Positions 29,486-39,301 of a DNA stretch of 42,774 nt are shown here, one piece after another (position 1 is the stretch's first letter; every line of letters begins with the position of its first letter). The stretch is from a virus. The notes beneath the pieces were generated by a model. It did not search any database and was not told the DNA's origin. It saw only the letters and a program-made list of their open reading frames with translations. Location of the stretch: positions 1 to 42,774 of the IMG/VR virus record IMGVR_UViG_3300009100_000020, one strand, 5' to 3'. The position numbers were made by a program, and so were the translations under genes.

Positions 29486-29685
29486 GACTGCAACAACTCG
29501 ACCAGCTTGGCGTTGCGGCGGCGCTCGCGTGCCAGCAACAGCATCAGCGCATGGCGGGCGCGGGCAGGGTCGCGCTCGAGCGCCAGGCGCGCGGGCGGAC
29601 GGGCGGCTGCGGACAGCTCGGCCGCGCCGTGCTTAAGCTCGGCCACGCGTGCGCTGGCCAGCAGCGATTGCTTGAGCCGGTTCAT
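29482..29685 (-). CDS. small helical Ala/Arg-rich protein
   Basis: A 67-residue protein ([38 protein letters not shown]), predicted to be almost wholly alpha-helical. Both ends overlap neighbours by four bases (ATGA), which argues for translation. It lies between the collagen-like fibre gene and the connector, so it may be a scaffold or a chaperone-like helper for one of them. No family recognised. Confidence 0.5.
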
Positions 29686-30923
29686 TTGGTTTCCGTGTGG
29701 AATTGCTCGAACAGCTCGCGCAGCGGTAATGCCACTTCATCGCCGTCGGACATGACAGCAATTGCACGATAACTGGCGCGGTCGATTCGCCATTTGACGA
29801 TGCGGGCGCCGGGCGGGCCTTGCTCGCCCTTCACGCCGCGCTCGCCAGGGCGGCCAGGCTCACCATCGCGGCCAGGCTTGCCCGCGCGGCCGACGCCGCA
29901 GAGAAGTTGCCAGCCCTCACCAGGACAAGGGCCGGGCGCGTCCTTCAACGCAACGAAGCTCGAACCGTTGACCATGACTAAGTCGAGCCGGGCATATTCG
30001 GCTTCGGCCTGGTGCAGCCCGCGCGGGTTGATGGCAGCACCGTCGCGACCGCCGACCGCCAAGCAGATCCAATCGGCGCTATGGCCGGGCCTGGTCGCGG
30101 TATCCTTGAGCGCCTGGTAGCAGGCGCCATCGCAGGCGAAGACGTCGCCTTCATAGGCGACCGTATCCGGCCGCCACAGCTTGCCCTTCGGCAGCTTGCC
30201 GCGTGGACCTTCCGCGCCGCGCTCACCGGCGACCCCGCGCTCGCCTTGCGGTCCGGACGGTCCCGGTGGTCCGGGTGGGCCGTCAACGCCAGGCTGGCCG
30301 GGCGGCCCTTGCTCACCGATGGCCCCGCGTTCGCCCTGCGGACCGGGCGGGCCGTTAGCACCGGGCTGACCGGATGGGCCTTGCTCGCCTATCGGCCCCG
30401 TTGCCCCTGCCGCGCCGGGCGCACCGGGCTCGCCGTCTTTGCCAGGCTGACCGGCTTCGCCAGGCTCGCCCTTTTCGCCGCGCTCGCCTTGATCGCCCTT
30501 ATCGCCGATAGCGCCAGGCGGCCCCGCGGCGCCTGCTGGCCCTTGCTCGCCTTGCAGTCCTTGCTCGCCGACATCGCCTTTCTCTCCCTTGCTGCCGGGC
30601 TCGCCATTGATGCCAGGCGGCCCTGGTAGGCCGGGCGGCCCGCGCTCGCCGATTTCGCCAGGTTCGCCGGTGTCGCCTTTCTCACCGCGCTCGCCTGGCG
30701 CGCCGTCGCGCACGCGCGCCAGACAGTCATCCACGACACGCCGCACTTCCTCGCGTAGCTCGGCGTTTTGCGCGCGCAGCTCGGCAATGGTGGCGCGCGC
30801 CTGCGCCTCGATTGTCTCGCGCTCGCGTGCCCATTGGCGGCGCTGCTCGGCAATGACCTGGCCGAGTGCGGCGCGAAGTTCGTCAAGCTCGCCGTCGAGC
30901 TGCAAAGCGTAAGCGTGATTCAT
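29682..30923 (-). CDS. collagen-like fibre with coiled coil and carbohydrate-binding-like modules, in the head module
   Basis: A 413-residue protein. Residues 1-75 form a long charged coiled coil ([37 protein letters not shown]). Residues about 76-245 are uninterrupted Gly-X-Y triplets ([19 protein letters not shown]). Two short modules follow: [19 protein letters not shown]...CYQAL and [19 protein letters not shown], each like the W/Y-rich CBM5/12-type chitin-binding folds often fused to phage fibres. A second short collagen segment ([16 protein letters not shown]) then precedes a C-terminal beta domain. It is placed between the portal and the connectors, not in the tail-fibre cluster. A trimeric head or neck fibre is therefore likely. 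No known receptor. Confidence 0.75.
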
Positions 30924-33502
30924 TCTTCCTCGCTTTCGCCTTCATCGGATTCCCCGGCCTCGATGCGAGCCTTGACGGCATCAGAAATCTTTTTGGCCGC
31001 GGCGTCATCGCCGTCGTCGAGAATGTCCTGATGCAGCTCGGCGTCTTGGTAGTTGCCGTCGTCGTCGATGTAAAAGAATTCTTTCGACTTGGGATTTTTC
31101 GTTCCGGTCTTCGGCGGCAGGTCGTCGGCGCGCACGACGCGGAAATGTTTTGCCGCAGATTTCTTTTTGCCGACATAGGCATCGAAGCGCGCCATCGATT
31201 CCTTGTCGCCGAAAACCAGCTTGCCCTCCCATGACGAGCCCAGCAACATTTGCTTGCCAAATGCGCTATCGGCAATGGCCCATATTGCCTTCGGGTCGTT
31301 GCTCTTGAGCGCGCCGCCGATTTGAGATTGCACCATCGCCAGCACTTCGGGAGTTGATTTTCCCAGCCTGCGATTGATCGACTCGCGGATCTTGCTCCAA
31401 GCGCCTTTGGTTGGAACGTAGCCATATTTGGCCCAGGCATAGCCGCCGACGTCGAGATTGGCTTTTGTCTCAAGATGCTTGATGCCAAGGTCGCGGTAGG
31501 TCTGCACATTTCCTGCAAGCAACTTTTTGCCGACGCCCTTGGATTGCGCTTCCTTGCTGACTTCGAACAGATCCGAAGTTGCAACGTTGCGTTTGACATC
31601 TATCGAGCGCTGAAATTCGCCGACGGTTTTGCCGCCTTCCTTGAGCTTGCCGCTAATCTCTATAAGATGCTCGCGGGTCTGTTTGCCGCCCGGCTTGCTG
31701 GTGCCGACATTGAAGCTGCGCAGCGACACCGTCATGTCGCCTTGTGCATCGCCGAGAAATGATTTTTTGAAATCACCGGGATCCATTCCGACGCTATCGT
31801 TCCAGACTTCAAGAAACTCCTTTTCGTCCACAGTCGAAACTTTGACGCCCTCTTGCTTGAACTTGCTGGTGCTTTCGACCTTGACCTTTTCCTTGCCGCC
31901 GCCCTTGCCGCCGCCGCTTGTCTCATCGCCACCGCTGCCCGGTTCACTGCCGCACAATAAGCCCGTCTCGGGATCCTGGCAGAAGTCGCGCAGCACAATG
32001 CGCCGGTCATATTCATCCGCCAGTGCGAGCAAGCTGCGGCGCTCACGCACGATGTTGGCCTTTTTCGGCGGCGGCTTGTCTTCGTCGTCGGACTCGAGCT
32101 TGGCGGGTTGCGGTTTGCCGGGCGGTGGCGCACCAGGTGCAGGCGCGGGCGGCGGATGCGGACCGGTCGAGAACGGCGACGGGCTGGTGGGGATGCCTGC
32201 CGCGGCAGACAGCGGCACGACCTGCTGTTGGACGCGCGGCTCATCGCCATGCGCGACTTTGGGATAGCTCTCGAGGTTGCGTGCTTCGTTAGGCGCCAGG
32301 ATGCCGCCCTGCACGGCACGCGCCAGGCTTTCGATGCGATCCTTGAACAGCGAGCGCAGCAACGCCGCGGTGTCCAGCTCAAGGTATTCGTCTGGCACGC
32401 CTTTGAGCTGGAACAGCACGCCAAAGGCTTCTTCGATATGCGAAAGACAGAACCCGAGCCCGCTGCTGACCCATGCCTGGTAAAGCGCTTCCACCGATGA
32501 AAACGCGGTGCCGCGGCCGCTCTTGTCGGACACGCCGAGCACCGCCAGCGGAATGCGAAACGCGAGCGCGATCTGTTCGTCGCTCATCTGTTTCATTTCC
32601 GCGACTTGCGAATCTTTGCCCGGCGTCGACCACGGTTGCACTTTCAAGCCAGCGGTCAGAATCGGCGTGCCGCCTGGTCCGCAGCCGTCGAGCCCGGCGG
32701 CTTGCTCGCGCCAGCGCTGGCGCAGCTCATCGACTTGCTGGCGGTTGAGCACCAGATCGGTCGACAGGATGGCCGAAGGCCGCGCCTGGTTGAGATAGAA
32801 CGCCGTCTGCTGTGCATTGATTGCCGAGCTGGTAGCAATCTCGGACAGCGCAGCGGTCAGCGGCGTCTCGCCGACCAGCGGGAATGGTTGCCGGCGGCGG
32901 ATGCAATGCAGGCGCACGTGCAGCACGTCGCGCATTGGCACCACCAGGCGCGCGTCCGGCGCCAGGCGCTTTTCAATCACATCGTTGCCGGCCAAGTGAT
33001 AAAAAATCTCGCCGTTATAGGCGAGCTGCGGCTTGCACTGGAATGGATCGAACATATGCAACGATTCAATCTCGAAGCGATTGTTGCGCAGCGCCAACGC
33101 ATAGGCGTTGCCCTCGAGATAGACCGAGCGCGTCAGATTCAACATGAAATCTGAAATGCTCTGATAGTCATTCGGATGGCGCAGGATGCGCGATAGCGCC
33201 GAATTGGTCACGCGCTCGCGGCCGCCGTTGGCTTTGCTGCGCCAATGGTCGCCTGGCAGCATGGCCACGGTCTGCGCGTAGGCCGATACGCATGCTTCCA
33301 CCATGGCGGATTGGCTTGAGCCGCCATAGGGATCCATCCCGGTTTGCCACCAGTTGATGGGCGCCCCGTCAGGAAGCCAGCCGCCGGTGACGGGCAGATA
33401 GTACGGCCCCGACCGCGGCTCGCCTTCGACCGCGCGCAACACCGCATTGGCATAGACATTTTGCGCCGCCGAGATGACGACGGGCGCAAGCGCCGTATCC
33501 AT
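30920..33502 (-). CDS. portal protein fused to a C-terminal GNAT-like extension
   Basis: An 860-residue protein. Residues 1-430 are a HK97-type portal: [52 protein letters not shown], and [21 protein letters not shown] near 303-323. Residues 436-480 are a Pro-rich linker. Residues 500-545 contain [19 protein letters not shown] and a Gly/Lys run. Residues about 585-702 are a separate domain with [29 protein letters not shown] and [10 protein letters not shown]; the QxxGxG and following helix/strand order look like acetyl-CoA-binding GNAT enzymes. An acidic tail ends the protein ([22 protein letters not shown]). Typical portals are about 400-450 residues, so half of this protein is extra. Its start is preceded by a possible terminator and it overlaps the collagen gene by four bases. 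Confidence 0.78.
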
Positions 33503-33908: not shown

Positions 33909-33984
33909 GTTGCTTACTAAGTTGCTTACCAAGAGCGACGCTGTGTCCTGCGCTTACTAGCCAGGACACAAGGTCGCTTACCAG
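33909..33984. repeat. four GTAAGC-containing repeats after the capsid gene
   Basis: On the minus strand, copies of TRGTAAGCR occur four times in about 75 bases: one contains the capsid stop codon (TGGTAAGCGACC, 33984-33973), one lies in the loop of a hairpin (TAGTAAGCGCAG), and two form a 12-base tandem pair (TGGTAAGCAAC and TAGTAAGCAAC, 33932-33909). The rest of this gap contains no gene. Confidence 0.6.
33942..33970 (-). terminator. hairpin after the capsid gene
   Basis: A perfect 9-base-pair inverted repeat (TGTGTCCTG with CAGGACACA) with an 11-base loop, starting 8 bases after the stop of the protease-capsid gene. No T-run follows, so it may be a processing or stability element rather than an intrinsic terminator. 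Confidence 0.45.
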
Positions 33985-36329
33985 TTGACGTTGTTGACCC
34001 ATGCGACGCAACCGCTGCGCCGCATTAACCAGTTGAGCGGCATGATCATTCGCAATGCGATGCTGTCAGTCTGAAACAGCGAACGCTGCGGTGACGCCAC
34101 GGTTCCGGGCGAGCCGGTGCCGACCAGCTCAAGTGGAGTCGTGTCCTCCATATGAAGCGTAGCAGAATCGCTAAGCTCGAAGCGCGGCCCGCCACCGCCG
34201 GCCGTAACGAAGTCCGCCGCGTCGACCAGGATGACGGTCCGGGTCGGGATCGTTGCCGAGTCGATGATCGGGATGTTGAGCAACGTGCCCTGACCGATTT
34301 CCGCCTTGAACGGGAAGATCCCGTTGGTGTTGGCCAGCGACGCCGACAGCATCTCGCCGGGATTCATCAGGAACACCGGGTTGCGGATGTTGCCCTTGGT
34401 GCTGGTGGTCAGCACGCCGACCAGCAGCTTGAGATCGCCGATGATCGCGGGCAGACCTGGCCCGGTCGTTGGCGTCTGCGCCGCCACACCGTTGAGCAAG
34501 CCCGCGGGCCGCGTGGTGGTCGCCGGGTTGGCGTCGATGAGCACCGAGTCGATGGACACCGACGTGTCGGTCTGGATGGCTTCGCGCAACACGCCTTCGA
34601 TGGCGGGTGTGCTGTGCTCGCTCATTTCGCGAGTCCACACGGTGATGACGGCGAGTTTTTTCGGCGTAAGATTCTGACTCGTGAACGCGCCGATGCGGAC
34701 CGGGATGGCGGCGCCTTCTCCGACGAAGGATCCGGCAATGGTCGGCGTCACCGAACGAGTCGGAATCACGATTTTCGCGGCACGTCCGAATTGCAACGTC
34801 AGGCCCCTGGCCGCAAACCGGGTATAGACGGCTTGCGGGATGAGCTGCGGCATCAGCTCGGCATAGGTTTGCTGTGCCAGTTCTTGCGCCCAACCCGGTA
34901 CTGTGGTCATGGCGGGCGCAGTGGCCGTGCGCAGGATAAGACCGCAAGCGACCCTGGTGACTTCGTCGTCGCCGTAGATCTTTTCGCACGCCTTGATCGG
35001 ATCAATTTGCCAGTCTTTCGCGAATATCGCGACCGTGCCCGCGCGCACCAGATATTCCAGCGGTGCCAGCTCTTTCTTGCGCTTGGGGATGACGTGCGGC
35101 GCACTGATATCGTGGTCGTTGCCATCTTCCGGGCGGCGCTGGTCGTGCAGCACCGTCAACGCCCGGCTCGAGCTGCCATTGCCGTTGCCGTCAGTCGACT
35201 TCGCCAGCAGCTTTTCCGATTGCAGCCAGGCATCGAGCCGCTTGCGCATCTTGGCGATGTCGGCATTGAGCGCGGTCGTCGTTTCGATTTCGTCATCTTG
35301 GACGTCATCGTTGTCCATCTTCGCCAGAAGCGCCGTCAGCGCGTCTTCCTTTGCCACCAGATCGGTTTGCAAAGCGGCGATCCGTTCTGAAAGCGTGCTC
35401 ATGATTTTTGAGCCCTTTCTATTGCGAGAAGTTGCGGCATGCTCGCCGGTGGCACCGTTGCGCCGGATGGTCCCGTTTCCTTTGCGTTGCTCCGCGAAAA
35501 CGAGTCCGAGCGTGTCGGTGGAAACTTTCAGAGACTTGGCCAACGCCAATGCATTGGCGTTGGCAGGTACCGCAACCAGCGAGCATTCGACCAGCTCTTG
35601 CTCGAGGAAGCGGAATGGCCCGAAGAATGGATCCGACTTTTCAGTCAGCGGTTCGCGCTTGGTGGCGCGGAAGCCGACCGACACCGCGCGCAGGATGTCA
35701 GCGTCAACCAGGCGGCGGATTTCGTCGATGCGCGGTGACGTGCCTTCCGGCGCCAGCTCGAGGCGGCCACGAAGCTGCACGCCGTTGACCTTGACGTCAT
35801 GCCAGCGACCTACAATGAAGGTCGGGTCGTGCGCAAAAAGTGCTACGGGGTTGCGCTTGAACGAATCTGTTTTCCAGCCATCGGCGGAAATGATGTCGCC
35901 CATCCGGTCTTCGGATTCATCCGATAAGACGAAGTGCCAGCCGGTGCCAGCCTTGCGCGCTTTTTCGGCATGCGTGGCGCGGTGCACGTGATCGGCGCCG
36001 CTACTGCGCTCCGACCACAGCATGGCGCAGGCTTCCTCATCGTCGATGGCATCGACGCAATCGCTGATGAATTCTTCGCGGTCGTCATAGTCTTCGGGAT
36101 CCGGTGCTTCGGCTTTTGTCGTCAGCAACCTTTTCCAGAGCGCGATGATGCGTTTGACTTCGGCGGCCGGTGGCGCCGCTAAGTTTTTGCTGTCGCGCCA
36201 GTAGCCCATGCAGATCGCAACAGCCTGTTCCTGCGTGCGATCTTCCGGCGCGTCGTCGCCGAATGTCTCGCTCATGCAGCGGGCCATGAAGTCCGACTGG
36301 CTTTCGCCAGGCTTGGGTTTCATCGGCAT
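33978..36329 (-). CDS. prohead protease-major capsid protein fusion (HK97 type)
   Basis: A 783-residue protein. Residues about 130-275 are a HK97-type (S78) prohead protease: VALFAHDP with His167, RAVSVGF with Ser217, and ELVECSLVAVPANANALA with Glu248 are the family's key blocks. Residues about 310-385 are a coiled-coil delta/scaffold domain (MSTLSERIAALQTDLVAKED). Residues about 470-783 are the HK97-fold capsid (APAMTTVPGWAQELAQQTY, GEGAAIPVRIGAF, LIDANPATTTRPAGLL, SPQRSLFQTDSIALRMIM). A possible internal start exists at ATG 35402 (Met310), ten bases after AAGGG, which would yield capsid plus delta without protease. The N-terminal 110 residues carry a Cys/acidic extension with ESQSDFMARCMSETFGDDA, seen also in other phage capsid-assembly proteins. 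Start at 36329 is preceded by GGGAG. Confidence 0.88.
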   Translation of the reverse strand: MPMKPKPGESQSDFMARCMSETFGDDAPEDRTQEQAVAICMGYWRDSKNLAAPPAAEVKRIIALWKRLLTTKAEAPDPEDYDDREEFISDCVDAIDDEEACAMLWSERSSGADHVHRATHAEKARKAGTGWHFVLSDESEDRMGDIISADGWKTDSFKRNPVALFAHDPTFIVGRWHDVKVNGVQLRGRLELAPEGTSPRIDEIRRLVDADILRAVSVGFRATKREPLTEKSDPFFGPFRFLEQELVECSLVAVPANANALALAKSLKVSTDTLGLVFAEQRKGNGTIRRNGATGEHAATSRNRKGSKIMSTLSERIAALQTDLVAKEDALTALLAKMDNDDVQDDEIETTTALNADIAKMRKRLDAWLQSEKLLAKSTDGNGNGSSSRALTVLHDQRRPEDGNDHDISAPHVIPKRKKELAPLEYLVRAGTVAIFAKDWQIDPIKACEKIYGDDEVTRVACGLILRTATAPAMTTVPGWAQELAQQTYAELMPQLIPQAVYTRFAARGLTLQFGRAAKIVIPTRSVTPTIAGSFVGEGAAIPVRIGAFTSQNLTPKKLAVITVWTREMSEHSTPAIEGVLREAIQTDTSVSIDSVLIDANPATTTRPAGLLNGVAAQTPTTGPGLPAIIGDLKLLVGVLTTSTKGNIRNPVFLMNPGEMLSASLANTNGIFPFKAEIGQGTLLNIPIIDSATIPTRTVILVDAADFVTAGGGGPRFELSDSATLHMEDTTPLELVGTGSPGTVASPQRSLFQTDSIALRMIMPLNWLMRRSGCVAWVNNVNW

Positions 36330-36341
36330 GGGGAATGCTCC

Positions 36342-36917
36342 CTAGAATTGCGCGAACGCCAGCCAGGTTCCGGCAACGTGCGTGATCGGCCAGCCCGCGG
36401 CGCGCAATTGCTCGAGCGCGCCGGTCACTTCGACACCAGGGTTGCCGTAGTCGTGCCAGACGATGACGCCGCCCGGCTTGATCAGCTTGCCCGCGGTGTC
36501 GCTGTCGTGCATGACCGCGTCATAGGAATGGTCACCGTCGATAAATACGGCATCACAGGGCTCGAGCTGGTCGGCGACGTCGAGTGAGCCTTGCGGCCGC
36601 AGCACCAGGCGAAAGCGCGGGTCATGCGTTGCCCAGCGGCCGGGCTTGTGTTGCACTTCCGATTGCTGGCAGCGCAGCGTCGTCACAAAGTCGCTCGGCA
36701 CGTCGACGCCGTAATAGCGCTCAATCGTCGGCACGTGCTCGAGTACGCGTCGCGCGGTCAGACCGGATGCAATACCAATTTCGACCATGACCCGCGGCCG
36801 CACGCGCCGCAGCAACGCGACCAGCACGGCACATTCATTGGCGTTGAGATAGGCGCTAAACGGTCCGCGCAGCGCCGTCGGGCCGAACGACGCTCTCGCG
36901 ACTTGCGGTAAGGCCAT
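36342..36917 (-). CDS. class I SAM-dependent methyltransferase
   Basis: A 191-residue enzyme of the Methyltransf_24-like type. Motif I is VEIGIASGLTARRVLEH (VExGxxxG), the acidic end of strand 2 is YYGVDVPSD, and the segment FIDGDHSYDAVMHD followed by LIKPGGVIVWHDYG is the family's conserved second half. The substrate cannot be told; members act on sugars, small molecules or proteins. Its start lies inside the end of the glycosyltransferase gene (62-base overlap), and it is followed 12 bases later by the protease-capsid gene. The pairing with a glycosyltransferase suggests methylation of a transferred sugar or of its carrier. Confidence 0.75.
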   Translation of the reverse strand: MALPQVARASFGPTALRGPFSAYLNANECAVLVALLRRVRPRVMVEIGIASGLTARRVLEHVPTIERYYGVDVPSDFVTTLRCQQSEVQHKPGRWATHDPRFRLVLRPQGSLDVADQLEPCDAVFIDGDHSYDAVMHDSDTAGKLIKPGGVIVWHDYGNPGVEVTGALEQLRAAGWPITHVAGTWLAFAQF

Positions 36918-38112
36918 GCAGTGCGCTCGTCCAATCGCCCGGCGCCGCCTGGCGGCAGATCTTCATGCTCGGATACCACGGGGCCAGCCAGCGCCAGCTC
37001 GCCCAATGCGACAGCAGTAACGTTACCGGCCGCTCGAGCGCACCCGCCAGATGCGCGGCGGCGGTGTCGACCGTCACAATCTCATCGAGCGCCAGCATCA
37101 GCGACGCGCAGTCGGTGAAATCCTCGAATTCATGCGTGCGCACGCCGAGCGCTTGCGCCTCTTCGCGGCCCTGCGTCTGCACCGAATGCAGCTCGACATC
37201 TGGTAGCGCCGCCACCAGCTCAGCCAGCGGGATCGCGCGCGGATAATCATCCTTGAACATTTGCCCGACCGACCAGGCGATGCCGACGCGGCGCTTGCCA
37301 TTGAGCGACCAGGCGACGCTACGGCGCGGCGCTGACAGCTTGAAATTGGGCAGCACGTCGCCCGGCGTGGCGACGCCGCAAAGATACGGCAACAGCAGGA
37401 ATGGGCAGAAGTAATCGGCCGACGGGTCGTCAAGCACCGGCCCGACTTGCGCCGCCAGCCGCTCAAGCGCGGGCGCGGTTGCCAGCCCCATCACCACGTC
37501 GAGCCCTTGCGCGCGCAGCCAGGCGACATAGCGCAGCGCCATGATGCTGTCGCCGAAGCCGTGCGCATGCAGCGCCAGCAGGCGCTTACCTGCCAACGGT
37601 TCACCGTGCCAGGGCCGCATTCCGGCCGCGAGCGCGGCCTTGCATTGCGGGCGCTGGAACGGCGGCATAGCCTCGCAATCAAAATATTCGCTAAAACCTT
37701 CGTGCCACCGTCCGACCGCCAGCAACATGAAAGCTCGGTTGAAGCGCGCGTGCACGGTCGGCGCGATGACAATGGCAGCATCAGCCTCCAACAGCGCTTC
37801 ATGGTTCTGATTGCTGCGGAACAATGCAGCGGCGCGATTGAAGTGCATCAGGTAGCGGTCGATGCTGACGCCGGGCCGTTGCTCAATCGCGCGATAGCCG
37901 ACGGCTTCGCCGCTGCGCATGACCAGCAGCGGTTCGTTCGGCGGCTCGGGCTTGTGGCCATTGCGGCCGTGCACTTCGAGCAGCTCGCCGTGCTCGGTCA
38001 GCCCGCGCCAGCCGGTTTCGGTTACCTCACACGCGACGACAGGATCCAGGTCCGGCAAATCGCCGAATCCAGAAAAAATCGTTTTGCCCTTGTTTGTTTC
38101 CATGCAGATCAA
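36856..38112 (-). CDS. TPR-containing glycosyltransferase-like protein (GT-B, heptosyltransferase-like)
   Basis: About 415 residues. Residues about 85-150 are tetratricopeptide-like helices (YLMHFNRAAALFRSNQNHE, FMLLAVGRWHEGFSEYFD). The second half is GT-B-like: LLALHAHGFGDSIMALRYV (GFGD loop), VGIAWSVGQMFKDDYPRAI in the donor domain, and EIVTVDTAAAHLAGALERP, typical of the GT9/TPR transferases that use nucleotide-sugar donors. The frame opens at TTG 38112, but ATG 38103 (METNKG) is the more likely start. No ribosome site is clear. The GGCNN array ends about 20-30 bases upstream of the start. The gene lies between the second capsid gene and the methyltransferase, in a head-gene block, so the acceptor may be a virion protein, but a host target is equally possible. 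Confidence 0.72.
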   Translation of the reverse strand: MICMETNKGKTIFSGFGDLPDLDPVVACEVTETGWRGLTEHGELLEVHGRNGHKPEPPNEPLLVMRSGEAVGYRAIEQRPGVSIDRYLMHFNRAAALFRSNQNHEALLEADAAIVIAPTVHARFNRAFMLLAVGRWHEGFSEYFDCEAMPPFQRPQCKAALAAGMRPWHGEPLAGKRLLALHAHGFGDSIMALRYVAWLRAQGLDVVMGLATAPALERLAAQVGPVLDDPSADYFCPFLLLPYLCGVATPGDVLPNFKLSAPRRSVAWSLNGKRRVGIAWSVGQMFKDDYPRAIPLAELVAALPDVELHSVQTQGREEAQALGVRTHEFEDFTDCASLMLALDEIVTVDTAAAHLAGALERPVTLLLSHWASWRWLAPWYPSMKICRQAAPGDWTSALHGLTASRESVVRPDGAARTV

Positions 38113-38242: not shown

Positions 38243-39301
38243 TCATTTCCAAACAGGAGTCATCCAAGCGAAAGCACGCGGGTCGCGCAAGGCCCAGGTC
38301 ACGGGCCAGCGCATTTTAAGGCTCATAGTATCCGTTTGAAACATCGAGCGTTGCGGCCCCATGGTCCCGGCGGGACCGGGCACGGTATCCATCACTAAGC
38401 TCGCGGCCTTCGATGTCTCAATTTCCGGCTGCGGCGAGAACGCTGCCACCAGCGCCGCGGGCGCAATCGCCAGCACGTCGTTGATGACCGCGCTCGAGCC
38501 CAGCACAATGACGTTGGTTCCGCTCGGCGCGCCGCTGGTGCGGGCATTGAACAACATCGCCCGGCCCGGCGACATGACCAGGATAAACGGCCCGTTGCCG
38601 CCGACCGGCGCGAGTTCATTGAACAGCACGCCCATGTCTTCGTAGAACGCATAGGTCGGATCGGCATTGTTCGACGCCGTCGATGCCGCGATGCCATAGC
38701 GCAGGCCCGCCGGGCGAGCGGCGTCGCCGGGATTGGCGTCGAATAGCACTTCGTCGAGCATCCGGCCGGCGGCGTGCGTCAGGGTATCTTCCACCAGCGC
38801 TTCGGCGTTGCTGCTTTCGATCATCTCCCGCGTCAGCACCGCGATGGCAGCGAGCTTGTGCGGCTCGAGAAGGGCAGGCGATGCCGCGAGCTGGCGCACC
38901 GGGATCGGAGCACCTTCGGCGACGAAGCCAGCATTGCCGAACTCGGCCACAAAGCCGGGCGCACTGATTGAGCCGAAGCCGTCGAAGTTGAGCACCAGGC
39001 TGTTGCGGAAGATCTCGGCGGCCGCCGACGCCGGACCAAGCGCCTTGAGATTGTCCGCCACCATGCGCTGCGCCAGCTCGGCGGCCCAGCCCGCCACCGA
39101 TGTCATGGCCGGCGCCACCGCCGCGCGTATCACCCGGTCGCTCGGATAACGCTCGGCCACCACGTCCTCAATCCGGCGCCCTCGCACTTGCGCAATGATT
39201 TGTGCCGTCACCAGGCGCACGAAGCTGTTGCCGCCCGGTAGCGATGGCTCGGGCTGGAATGACGGCTTCACCGGCTGCGGCGGCGTCATGAGCATGTTCA
39301 T
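38243..39301 (-). CDS. second HK97-fold capsid protein (minor or vertex type), 352 residues
   Basis: Homologous to the capsid domain of the gene at 33978-36329: VAPAMTSVAGWAAELAQRM, AEGAPIPVRQLAA, LTREMIESSNAEALVEDTL, VLFDANPGDAARPAGLRYG, and the ending PQRSMFQTDTMSLKMRWPV all have counterparts there in the same order. It lacks the N-terminal protease and the coiled-coil delta domain, starting instead with a short Pro/Gln-rich segment (PPQPVKPSFQPEPSLP). Both copies keep the structured blocks, and neither is frame-broken. In other phages paired capsid proteins divide hexamer and vertex sites, which is a plausible job here. The leader contains a 10-base-pair hairpin at 39340-39381. Confidence 0.82.
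   Translation of the reverse strand: MNMLMTPPQPVKPSFQPEPSLPGGNSFVRLVTAQIIAQVRGRRIEDVVAERYPSDRVIRAAVAPAMTSVAGWAAELAQRMVADNLKALGPASAAAEIFRNSLVLNFDGFGSISAPGFVAEFGNAGFVAEGAPIPVRQLAASPALLEPHKLAAIAVLTREMIESSNAEALVEDTLTHAAGRMLDEVLFDANPGDAARPAGLRYGIAASTASNNADPTYAFYEDMGVLFNELAPVGGNGPFILVMSPGRAMLFNARTSGAPSGTNVIVLGSSAVINDVLAIAPAALVAAFSPQPEIETSKAASLVMDTVPGPAGTMGPQRSMFQTDTMSLKMRWPVTWALRDPRAFAWMTPVWK

What the first reader, a model, noticed from the sequence alone, without database searches (positions are those of the whole stretch)
30920..33502. Portal protein carries a GNAT-like domain and a long acidic tail
HK97-type portals usually end near residue 430-450. Here 400 residues more follow a Pro-rich linker. 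A discrete block (about residues 585-702 of 860) has [29 protein letters not shown] and [10 protein letters not shown], which looks like the acetyl-CoA-binding core of GNAT enzymes. Some phage head proteins (MuF type) are known to carry effector domains that may be delivered with DNA. A portal-linked one would be present in 12 copies at the unique vertex, so it might act on capsid or host proteins at infection, during packaging, or on a host process. Activity is not shown by sequence.
Basis: partly seen in the sequence, partly recalled or inferred. Interest (0 to 1): 0.88.

Follow-up and report, generated by a model that had tools for sequence, protein, structure and literature searches.

The report
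Portal fused to acetyltransferase and partner
In this phage the protein ring through which DNA enters the head has gained a built-in acetyltransferase-like enzyme plus a small companion protein that in related phages is a separate gene right behind the enzyme, so the virus may carry this pair in its head and use it when it infects.

Summary
The 860-aa ORF (minus strand, 33502-30920) is real: an HK97-type portal (PF04860, E 9e-64) with about 350 extra residues. The 'acidic tail' is not just a tail: residues about 803-848 are homologous to a small protein encoded directly behind the GNAT gene in 58 of 62 related viral contigs (61 of 62 have it somewhere), usually with overlapping genes. The window is therefore a triple fusion: portal + GNAT + partner. 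All 74 complete close portals lack the extension, so the fusion is lineage-specific, but the GNAT module is also attached to lambda-type portals, PF06381 portals, MuF proteins and zeta-like kinases, or stands alone in head clusters. Both genes are under purifying selection. Best reading: a mobile, virion-associated acetyltransferase cargo with a near-obligate small partner, here carried on the portal. The GNAT fold is strongly predicted and the gene pairing is shown; activity, packaging, proteolytic release, injection and the partner's role are inferred. The concept (portal/MuF effector fusions, GNATs in polyvalent proteins) is published; this family, its partner and the triple fusion were not found described.

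The parts
30920..33502 (-). whole ORF, 860 aa: portal + GNAT + partner fusion
   Evidence: identical ORF in a second viral record
31991..33502 (-). portal part, residues 1-504 (PF04860 at 68-411), with Pro-rich stretch and the terminal helix on which close relatives end
31868..31990 (-). Gly-rich junction, residues 505-545 ([21 protein letters not shown]...), resembling the N-terminal DP/HPR...G..GG linker of stand-alone GNAT genes
   Evidence: homology to the motif is by eye
31169..31867 (-). GNAT unit, residues 546-778
   Evidence: AlphaFold2 model, Foldseek and VIA-align; family alignments
31526..31546 (-). putative acetyl-CoA pyrophosphate loop QSKGVGK, residues 653-659 (canonical Q/RxxGxG/A; K659 nearly invariant in the family)
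31418..31459 (-). family signature [14 protein letters not shown], residues 682-695
   Evidence: [10 protein letters not shown] invariant in 46 sequences; found by searches that themselves used this stretch as one seed
31169..31297 (-). C-terminal block [22 protein letters not shown], residues 736-778, part of the same fold (strand at 758-763)
30959..31096 (-). partner domain, residues 803-848 ([46 protein letters not shown] region), a separate downstream gene in relatives
30923..30952 (-). acidic C-terminal end, residues 851-860 ([10 protein letters not shown])
33978..36329 (-). prohead serine protease (S78) fused to major capsid protein: candidate protease for releasing head cargo
   Evidence: role in releasing this cargo is inference

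Best explanation
A mobile two-part cassette, a GNAT-fold acyltransferase plus a small dedicated partner, has been joined in frame to the C-terminus of an HK97-type portal. Because portal C-termini face the head interior, the fusion would put up to 12 copies of enzyme and partner inside the procapsid at the portal vertex. Most likely mechanism: (1) the portal carries the GNAT into the head; (2) the Gly-rich junction is cut, plausibly by the phage's own S78 prohead protease; (3) the GNAT enters the next host with the DNA and acylates a host target, in the manner proposed for MuF and polyvalent cargo and comparable to the phiKMV Rac acetyltransferase acting on RNA polymerase; (4) the partner binds the GNAT and controls it, most likely as an inhibitor or chaperone during virion production. 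Shown: the fusion, the conserved GNAT-partner pairing, attachment to several unrelated head proteins, purifying selection on both proteins. Strongly predicted: the GNAT fold. Inferred: catalysis, packaging, cleavage, injection, target, partner role.
For: GNAT fold: pLDDT about 95; Foldseek PDB best E 2.5e-5, 35 hits at E<=1e-3, all listed being GNAT/KAT; VIA Z up to 8.9, all 50 listed rows GNAT/KAT/Elp3. Head association: the module is fused to PF05136 portals (L053-L055), PF06381 portals (L041, L133, L139), MuF (L069, L073, L131, L142) and zeta-like kinases (L009, L012), shares an ORF with S78-capsid in L032, or stands in the TerL-capsid interval. Portal-fused copies fall in several separate places on the tree. 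Partner: directly behind the GNAT gene in 58 of 62 contigs and present in 61 of 62; partner-seeded searches found no partner lacking a GNAT in the contig where upstream DNA was available; start codon overlaps the GNAT gene, e.g. L131. dN/dS 0.07-0.39 for the GNAT module; partner dN 0.02-0.07 against dS 0.57-0.82. Precedents: GNATs in polyvalent proteins and PBECR/2H/InPase fused to MuF or portal (PMC5512222); Rac (PMC7824862).
Against: No assay or virion proteomics. The window's GNAT alone is below Pfam cut-offs. By motif spacing the usual catalytic Tyr position seems to hold an invariant Trp (W690), so chemistry may be unusual or absent. A portal-tethered domain cannot be injected unless cut, and no cleavage site is known. 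Partner fusions to the GNAT, capsid or kinases fit poorly with a stay-behind inhibitor. The triple fusion is seen in one viral lineage only.
Confidence: 0.5

Rival explanations
1. Toxin-immunity reading: the GNAT is a polymorphic-toxin-like effector used against cells and the partner is its immunity protein, which protects the producing lysogen; the window's fusion keeps them in one chain until processing.
For: Small ORF directly downstream, with gene overlap and near-obligate pairing, the pattern that Jamet et al. 2017 use as an argument for MuF immunity genes (89.4% of MuF toxin genes followed by an ORF under 150 aa, PMC5576092); the module occurs on MuF proteins.
Against: The partner is also fused to the N-terminus of capsid and kinase-type head-cluster proteins (L025, L049, L171, L201, L006, L038) and here to the GNAT itself, which suggests that it goes into the head. 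Toxicity not shown.
Confidence: 0.2
2. Partner as docking adaptor: the small protein is not an inhibitor but the piece that ties the GNAT to the head (or is its acyl acceptor); where GNAT or partner is fused to a portal, capsid or MuF protein the docking is covalent.
For: Partner or GNAT is repeatedly fused to head proteins.
Against: Many genomes have both as free proteins, and portal-GNAT fusions of the lambda and PF06381 types still keep a separate partner gene, which an adaptor would make unnecessary.
Confidence: 0.2
3. The GNAT works in the producing cell or inside the head (acylating capsid, terminase or packaged DNA) and is not injected.
For: Tethering to a portal that stays in the virion; position in the head cluster.
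Against: Optional: most close relatives with the same head genes lack it nearby, so it is not needed for assembly in general.
Confidence: 0.2
4. Degenerate, non-catalytic GNAT fold used as a structural or binding domain.
For: First Gly of the Q/RxxGxG loop is often replaced in relatives; Trp at the apparent catalytic Tyr position.
Against: Window keeps the canonical loop QSKGVG; the loop's last G/A, K659 and [10 protein letters not shown] are kept across distant phages; purifying selection.
Confidence: 0.15
5. Assembly artefact joining separate genes.
For: Fusion seen in one virus only.
Against: Two records agree with 1 mismatch in 19.3 kb, no frame break, and one intact GNAT-partner cassette joined in frame is hard to create by error. 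The two records could share a sample.
Confidence: 0.03

Closest known systems
Phage polyvalent proteins with GNAT, PBECR, 2H or InPase domains (Iyer et al. 2017, PMC5512222)
   Same: Multi-domain phage proteins encoded among virion genes, effector domains fused to portal or MuF; GNATs among the domains.
   Different: The two GNAT families described there are gammaproteobacterial phage GNATs beside ART domains and GNATs of conjugative elements; a GNAT-portal fusion and a small obligate partner were not found in the passages read. Whether this family is one of theirs by sequence was not testable.
MuF polymorphic toxins (Jamet et al. 2017, PMC5576092)
   Same: C-terminal cargo on a head protein, small ORF downstream; our module sits on MuF proteins in several phages.
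   Different: Window carrier is a portal, not MuF; the paper's text has no 'acetyl' term; toxicity unknown here. Their unnamed Ct_MAD extension of proteobacterial MuF proteins could not be compared.
phiKMV-group Rac acetyltransferase (cited in PMC7824862)
   Same: Phage GNAT acting on a host protein (RNA polymerase alpha).
   Different: Not known as a portal fusion; no sequence link tested.
HK97-type portal (PF04860, TIGR01537)
   Same: Residues 67-416 match both models above cut-off.
   Different: About 350 extra residues with two further domains.

Membership tests
HK97-type portal | match to PF04860 / TIGR01537 above curated cut-off | tested here: met
   216 bits vs 39; 144.5 vs 112
HK97-type portal | position in a TerS-TerL-capsid-portal head cluster | tested here: met
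HK97-type portal | dodecameric ring at one vertex | not testable with these tools
   general knowledge of the family only
GNAT superfamily | GNAT fold | tested here: met
   predicted model; listed Foldseek and VIA-align matches are all GNAT/KAT
GNAT superfamily | acetyl-CoA loop Q/RxxGxG/A | tested here: met
   QSKGVG at 653-658 in the window; first Gly not invariant in relatives
GNAT superfamily | sequence profile above Pfam gathering score | tested here: inconclusive
   13.6 bits vs 27 for PF13508; relative L073 had PF13673 at 21.5 vs 23.6. Not a defining feature of the fold: divergent members often miss the cut-off; the assignment rests on structure
GNAT superfamily | catalytic Tyr general acid | tested here: inconclusive
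   by motif spacing position 690 is an invariant Trp; no coordinates compared
GNAT superfamily | acyl transfer activity | not testable with these tools
   needs an assay
Phage polyvalent proteins | two or more fused carrier or effector domains encoded among virion genes | tested here: met
Phage polyvalent proteins | packaged and injected | not testable with these tools
   needs virion proteomics
MuF polymorphic toxins | N-terminal MuF domain | tested here: not met
   no MuF in the window protein; present in relatives L069, L073, L131, L142
MuF polymorphic toxins | small putative immunity ORF downstream of the toxin | tested here: met
   in relatives of the module; fused in the window
GNAT toxin-antitoxin pairs (TacAT type) | DNA-binding (RHH-type) antitoxin, usually encoded upstream | tested here: not met
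   partner is downstream and matches no such Pfam family

The most novel reading that the evidence does not exclude
A new virion-borne two-component system: a divergent acyltransferase family with an obligate small regulator that phages move between portals, MuF, other head proteins and free genes, and that one phage has fused into a single carrier-effector-regulator chain in the portal ring, delivering about 12 enzyme copies per infection.
Probability: 0.35. Interest if true: 0.78.

Novelty: new variant of a known kind. Interest (0 to 1): 0.6.

Why it matters
Head-delivered phage effectors are mostly inferred. This family offers a compact, testable case: an enzyme with a recognisable fold, a tiny conserved partner and several natural carriers, with relatives of the GNAT in isolated phages (Pseudomonas phage Lucjan on PAO1, Alteromonas phage R7M). 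Its copies behind three portal families suggest that the portal interior can serve as a cargo mount, and the partner gives a direct test of whether such cargo must be kept inactive during assembly.

Tried and rejected
Single-sequence Pfam, NCBIfam and PDB searches gave no significant GNAT hit; profile searches of PDB sequences stayed above E 0.03, so the fold rests on structure comparison. 'Simple acidic tail' was rejected once residues 803-848 matched downstream genes. Partner: no Pfam, PHROG (best E 0.0019, one member, unknown function) or PDB match that identifies it, and none in annotated phages by tblastn with one partner. Two alignment-seeded partner scans failed for lack of conserved stretches; single-protein scans worked. 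DNA similarity to phages: none. The family is rare in genomes of the bacterial family of its Bradyrhizobium carrier: 4 of 297 genomes. L032 first looked like a clean GNAT-capsid fusion; its frame runs through the partner gene in another frame, so it is a weaker example and is not counted on. The portal of the window as the only GNAT carrier was rejected.

Full report
WHAT IS THERE. The finding is on the minus strand: an ATG-started ORF, 33502-30920, 860 aa. Residues 68-411 are an HK97-type portal (PF04860 E 9.3e-64; TIGR01537 above cut-off). The gene lies in a head cluster with TerS, TerL, a capsid-like protein and an S78 protease-capsid fusion, and its stop overlaps the start of a collagen-like gene. 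The window is an IMG/VR virus record; a 76-kb record carries the same region with 1 mismatch in 19.3 kb.

GNAT DOMAIN. For the window alone, GNAT Pfam models score below cut-off. A search of viral contigs with residues 540-705 returned 65 loci; further searches reached distant phages and prophages, including Bradyrhizobium and Bacteroidota genomes. The family alignments show invariant [10 protein letters not shown] (partly a seed of the searches) and a nearly invariant K659 next to the loop QSKGVGK. AlphaFold2 on 61 sequences gave mean pLDDT 85.9, about 95 for most of residues 540-778. Foldseek against the PDB and VIA-align both return GNAT or KAT structures in every listed row, aligned over about residues 585-767. 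The C-terminal block [11 protein letters not shown]...YVGK belongs to the same fold and occurs with the GNAT in almost every relative. A helical insert of about 200 aa between the two, common in relatives, is absent here.

THE TAIL IS A SECOND PROTEIN. Residues 803-848 match small ORFs that start at or just before the GNAT stop codon in relatives. Of the 65 contigs, three are cut inside the GNAT gene; of the other 62, 58 have the partner within 500 bases behind (or fused to, or overlapping) the GNAT, three more have it 0.6-8 kb away, and one (L064) shows none. Several contigs are near duplicates, so these counts are not all independent. Among the close portal loci without a GNAT, none shows a partner apart from L171, whose upstream end still holds the end of a GNAT gene. 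Searches seeded with the partner found only contigs with a GNAT wherever upstream DNA was available. The two genes overlap in L131. In the window the pair lies behind the portal and all three are one frame. The partner has no named family. Its conserved residues correspond to Y811, D820 and H824.

WHEN AND WHERE FUSED. All 74 complete close portals end after the Pro-rich stretch and a short helix, without GNAT; the window's own portal part ends on a similar helix near residue 504. In relatives with this head cluster that have the module, it stands alone before the capsid genes. Elsewhere it is fused to lambda-type portals, PF06381 portals, MuF proteins, a portal-MuF protein and zeta-like kinases. 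On the tree these portal fusions lie in several separate places, some with starred support, while the window's own position is unresolved on a long branch.

FUNCTION. dN/dS of 0.07-0.39 (GNAT) and similarly low values for the partner show selection on both proteins. Repeated attachment to head proteins, with an S78 protease encoded nearby, points to packaging. GNAT cargo in phage polyvalent proteins, effector-portal fusions and MuF cargo with small downstream ORFs are published ideas (PMC5512222, PMC5576092), and a phage GNAT acting on host RNA polymerase is known (Rac, in PMC7824862). That portal C-termini face the head interior is general knowledge, not tested here. I therefore favour a head-delivered acyltransferase with a controlling partner. 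Packaging, cleavage, injection, activity and target are not shown. The partner could also be an immunity protein, adaptor or chaperone.

CAVEATS. The Trp at the apparent Tyr position is read from motif spacing only. The triple fusion itself is known from one viral lineage. The literature check covered an open-access library only, by four searches, and no paper found describes this family or its partner.

Noticed in passing
L018, L031, L035, L070, L121 and others, N-terminal to the GNAT; L028 ~res 495, L036 ~res 505 (portal ends): A junction motif (D-E-x-x-H-P-R...G-x-F/W..GGGG or DPxTGxF..GG) marks boundaries between portal, partner, GNAT and other cargo domains; 66 ORFs against 4 in shuffled proteins. 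Could be a linker or a cleavage signal.
   Followed up: partly
window 36345-38112: A GT9-like glycosyltransferase with TPR (418 aa) and a Methyltransf_24 protein (191 aa) sit inside the head gene cluster and are conserved there in many relatives: possible virion or capsid modification.
   Followed up: no
window 38246-39301: Second capsid-like protein (phrog_617, 352 aa) besides the protease-capsid polyprotein.
   Followed up: no
window 29682-30923: Collagen-like Gly-X-Y protein directly behind the portal, start overlapping the portal-fusion stop; conserved next to the portal in relatives.
   Followed up: no
L008 3214-4557 and most relatives: About 200-aa mostly helical insert (GYTPESWD...DPPDY...EYWD) inside the GNAT unit, absent in the window and in distant MuF-linked members.
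   Followed up: partly
L009, L012, L006, L013, L024, L038: Zeta-toxin-like kinases fused to the GNAT or, N-terminally, to the partner.
   Followed up: partly
L069 3267-5168 (Pseudomonas phage Lucjan); L067 3785-5698 (Alteromonas phage R7M): Isolated phages with the GNAT on the N-terminal side of a MuF or minor head protein: candidates for experiments.
   Followed up: no
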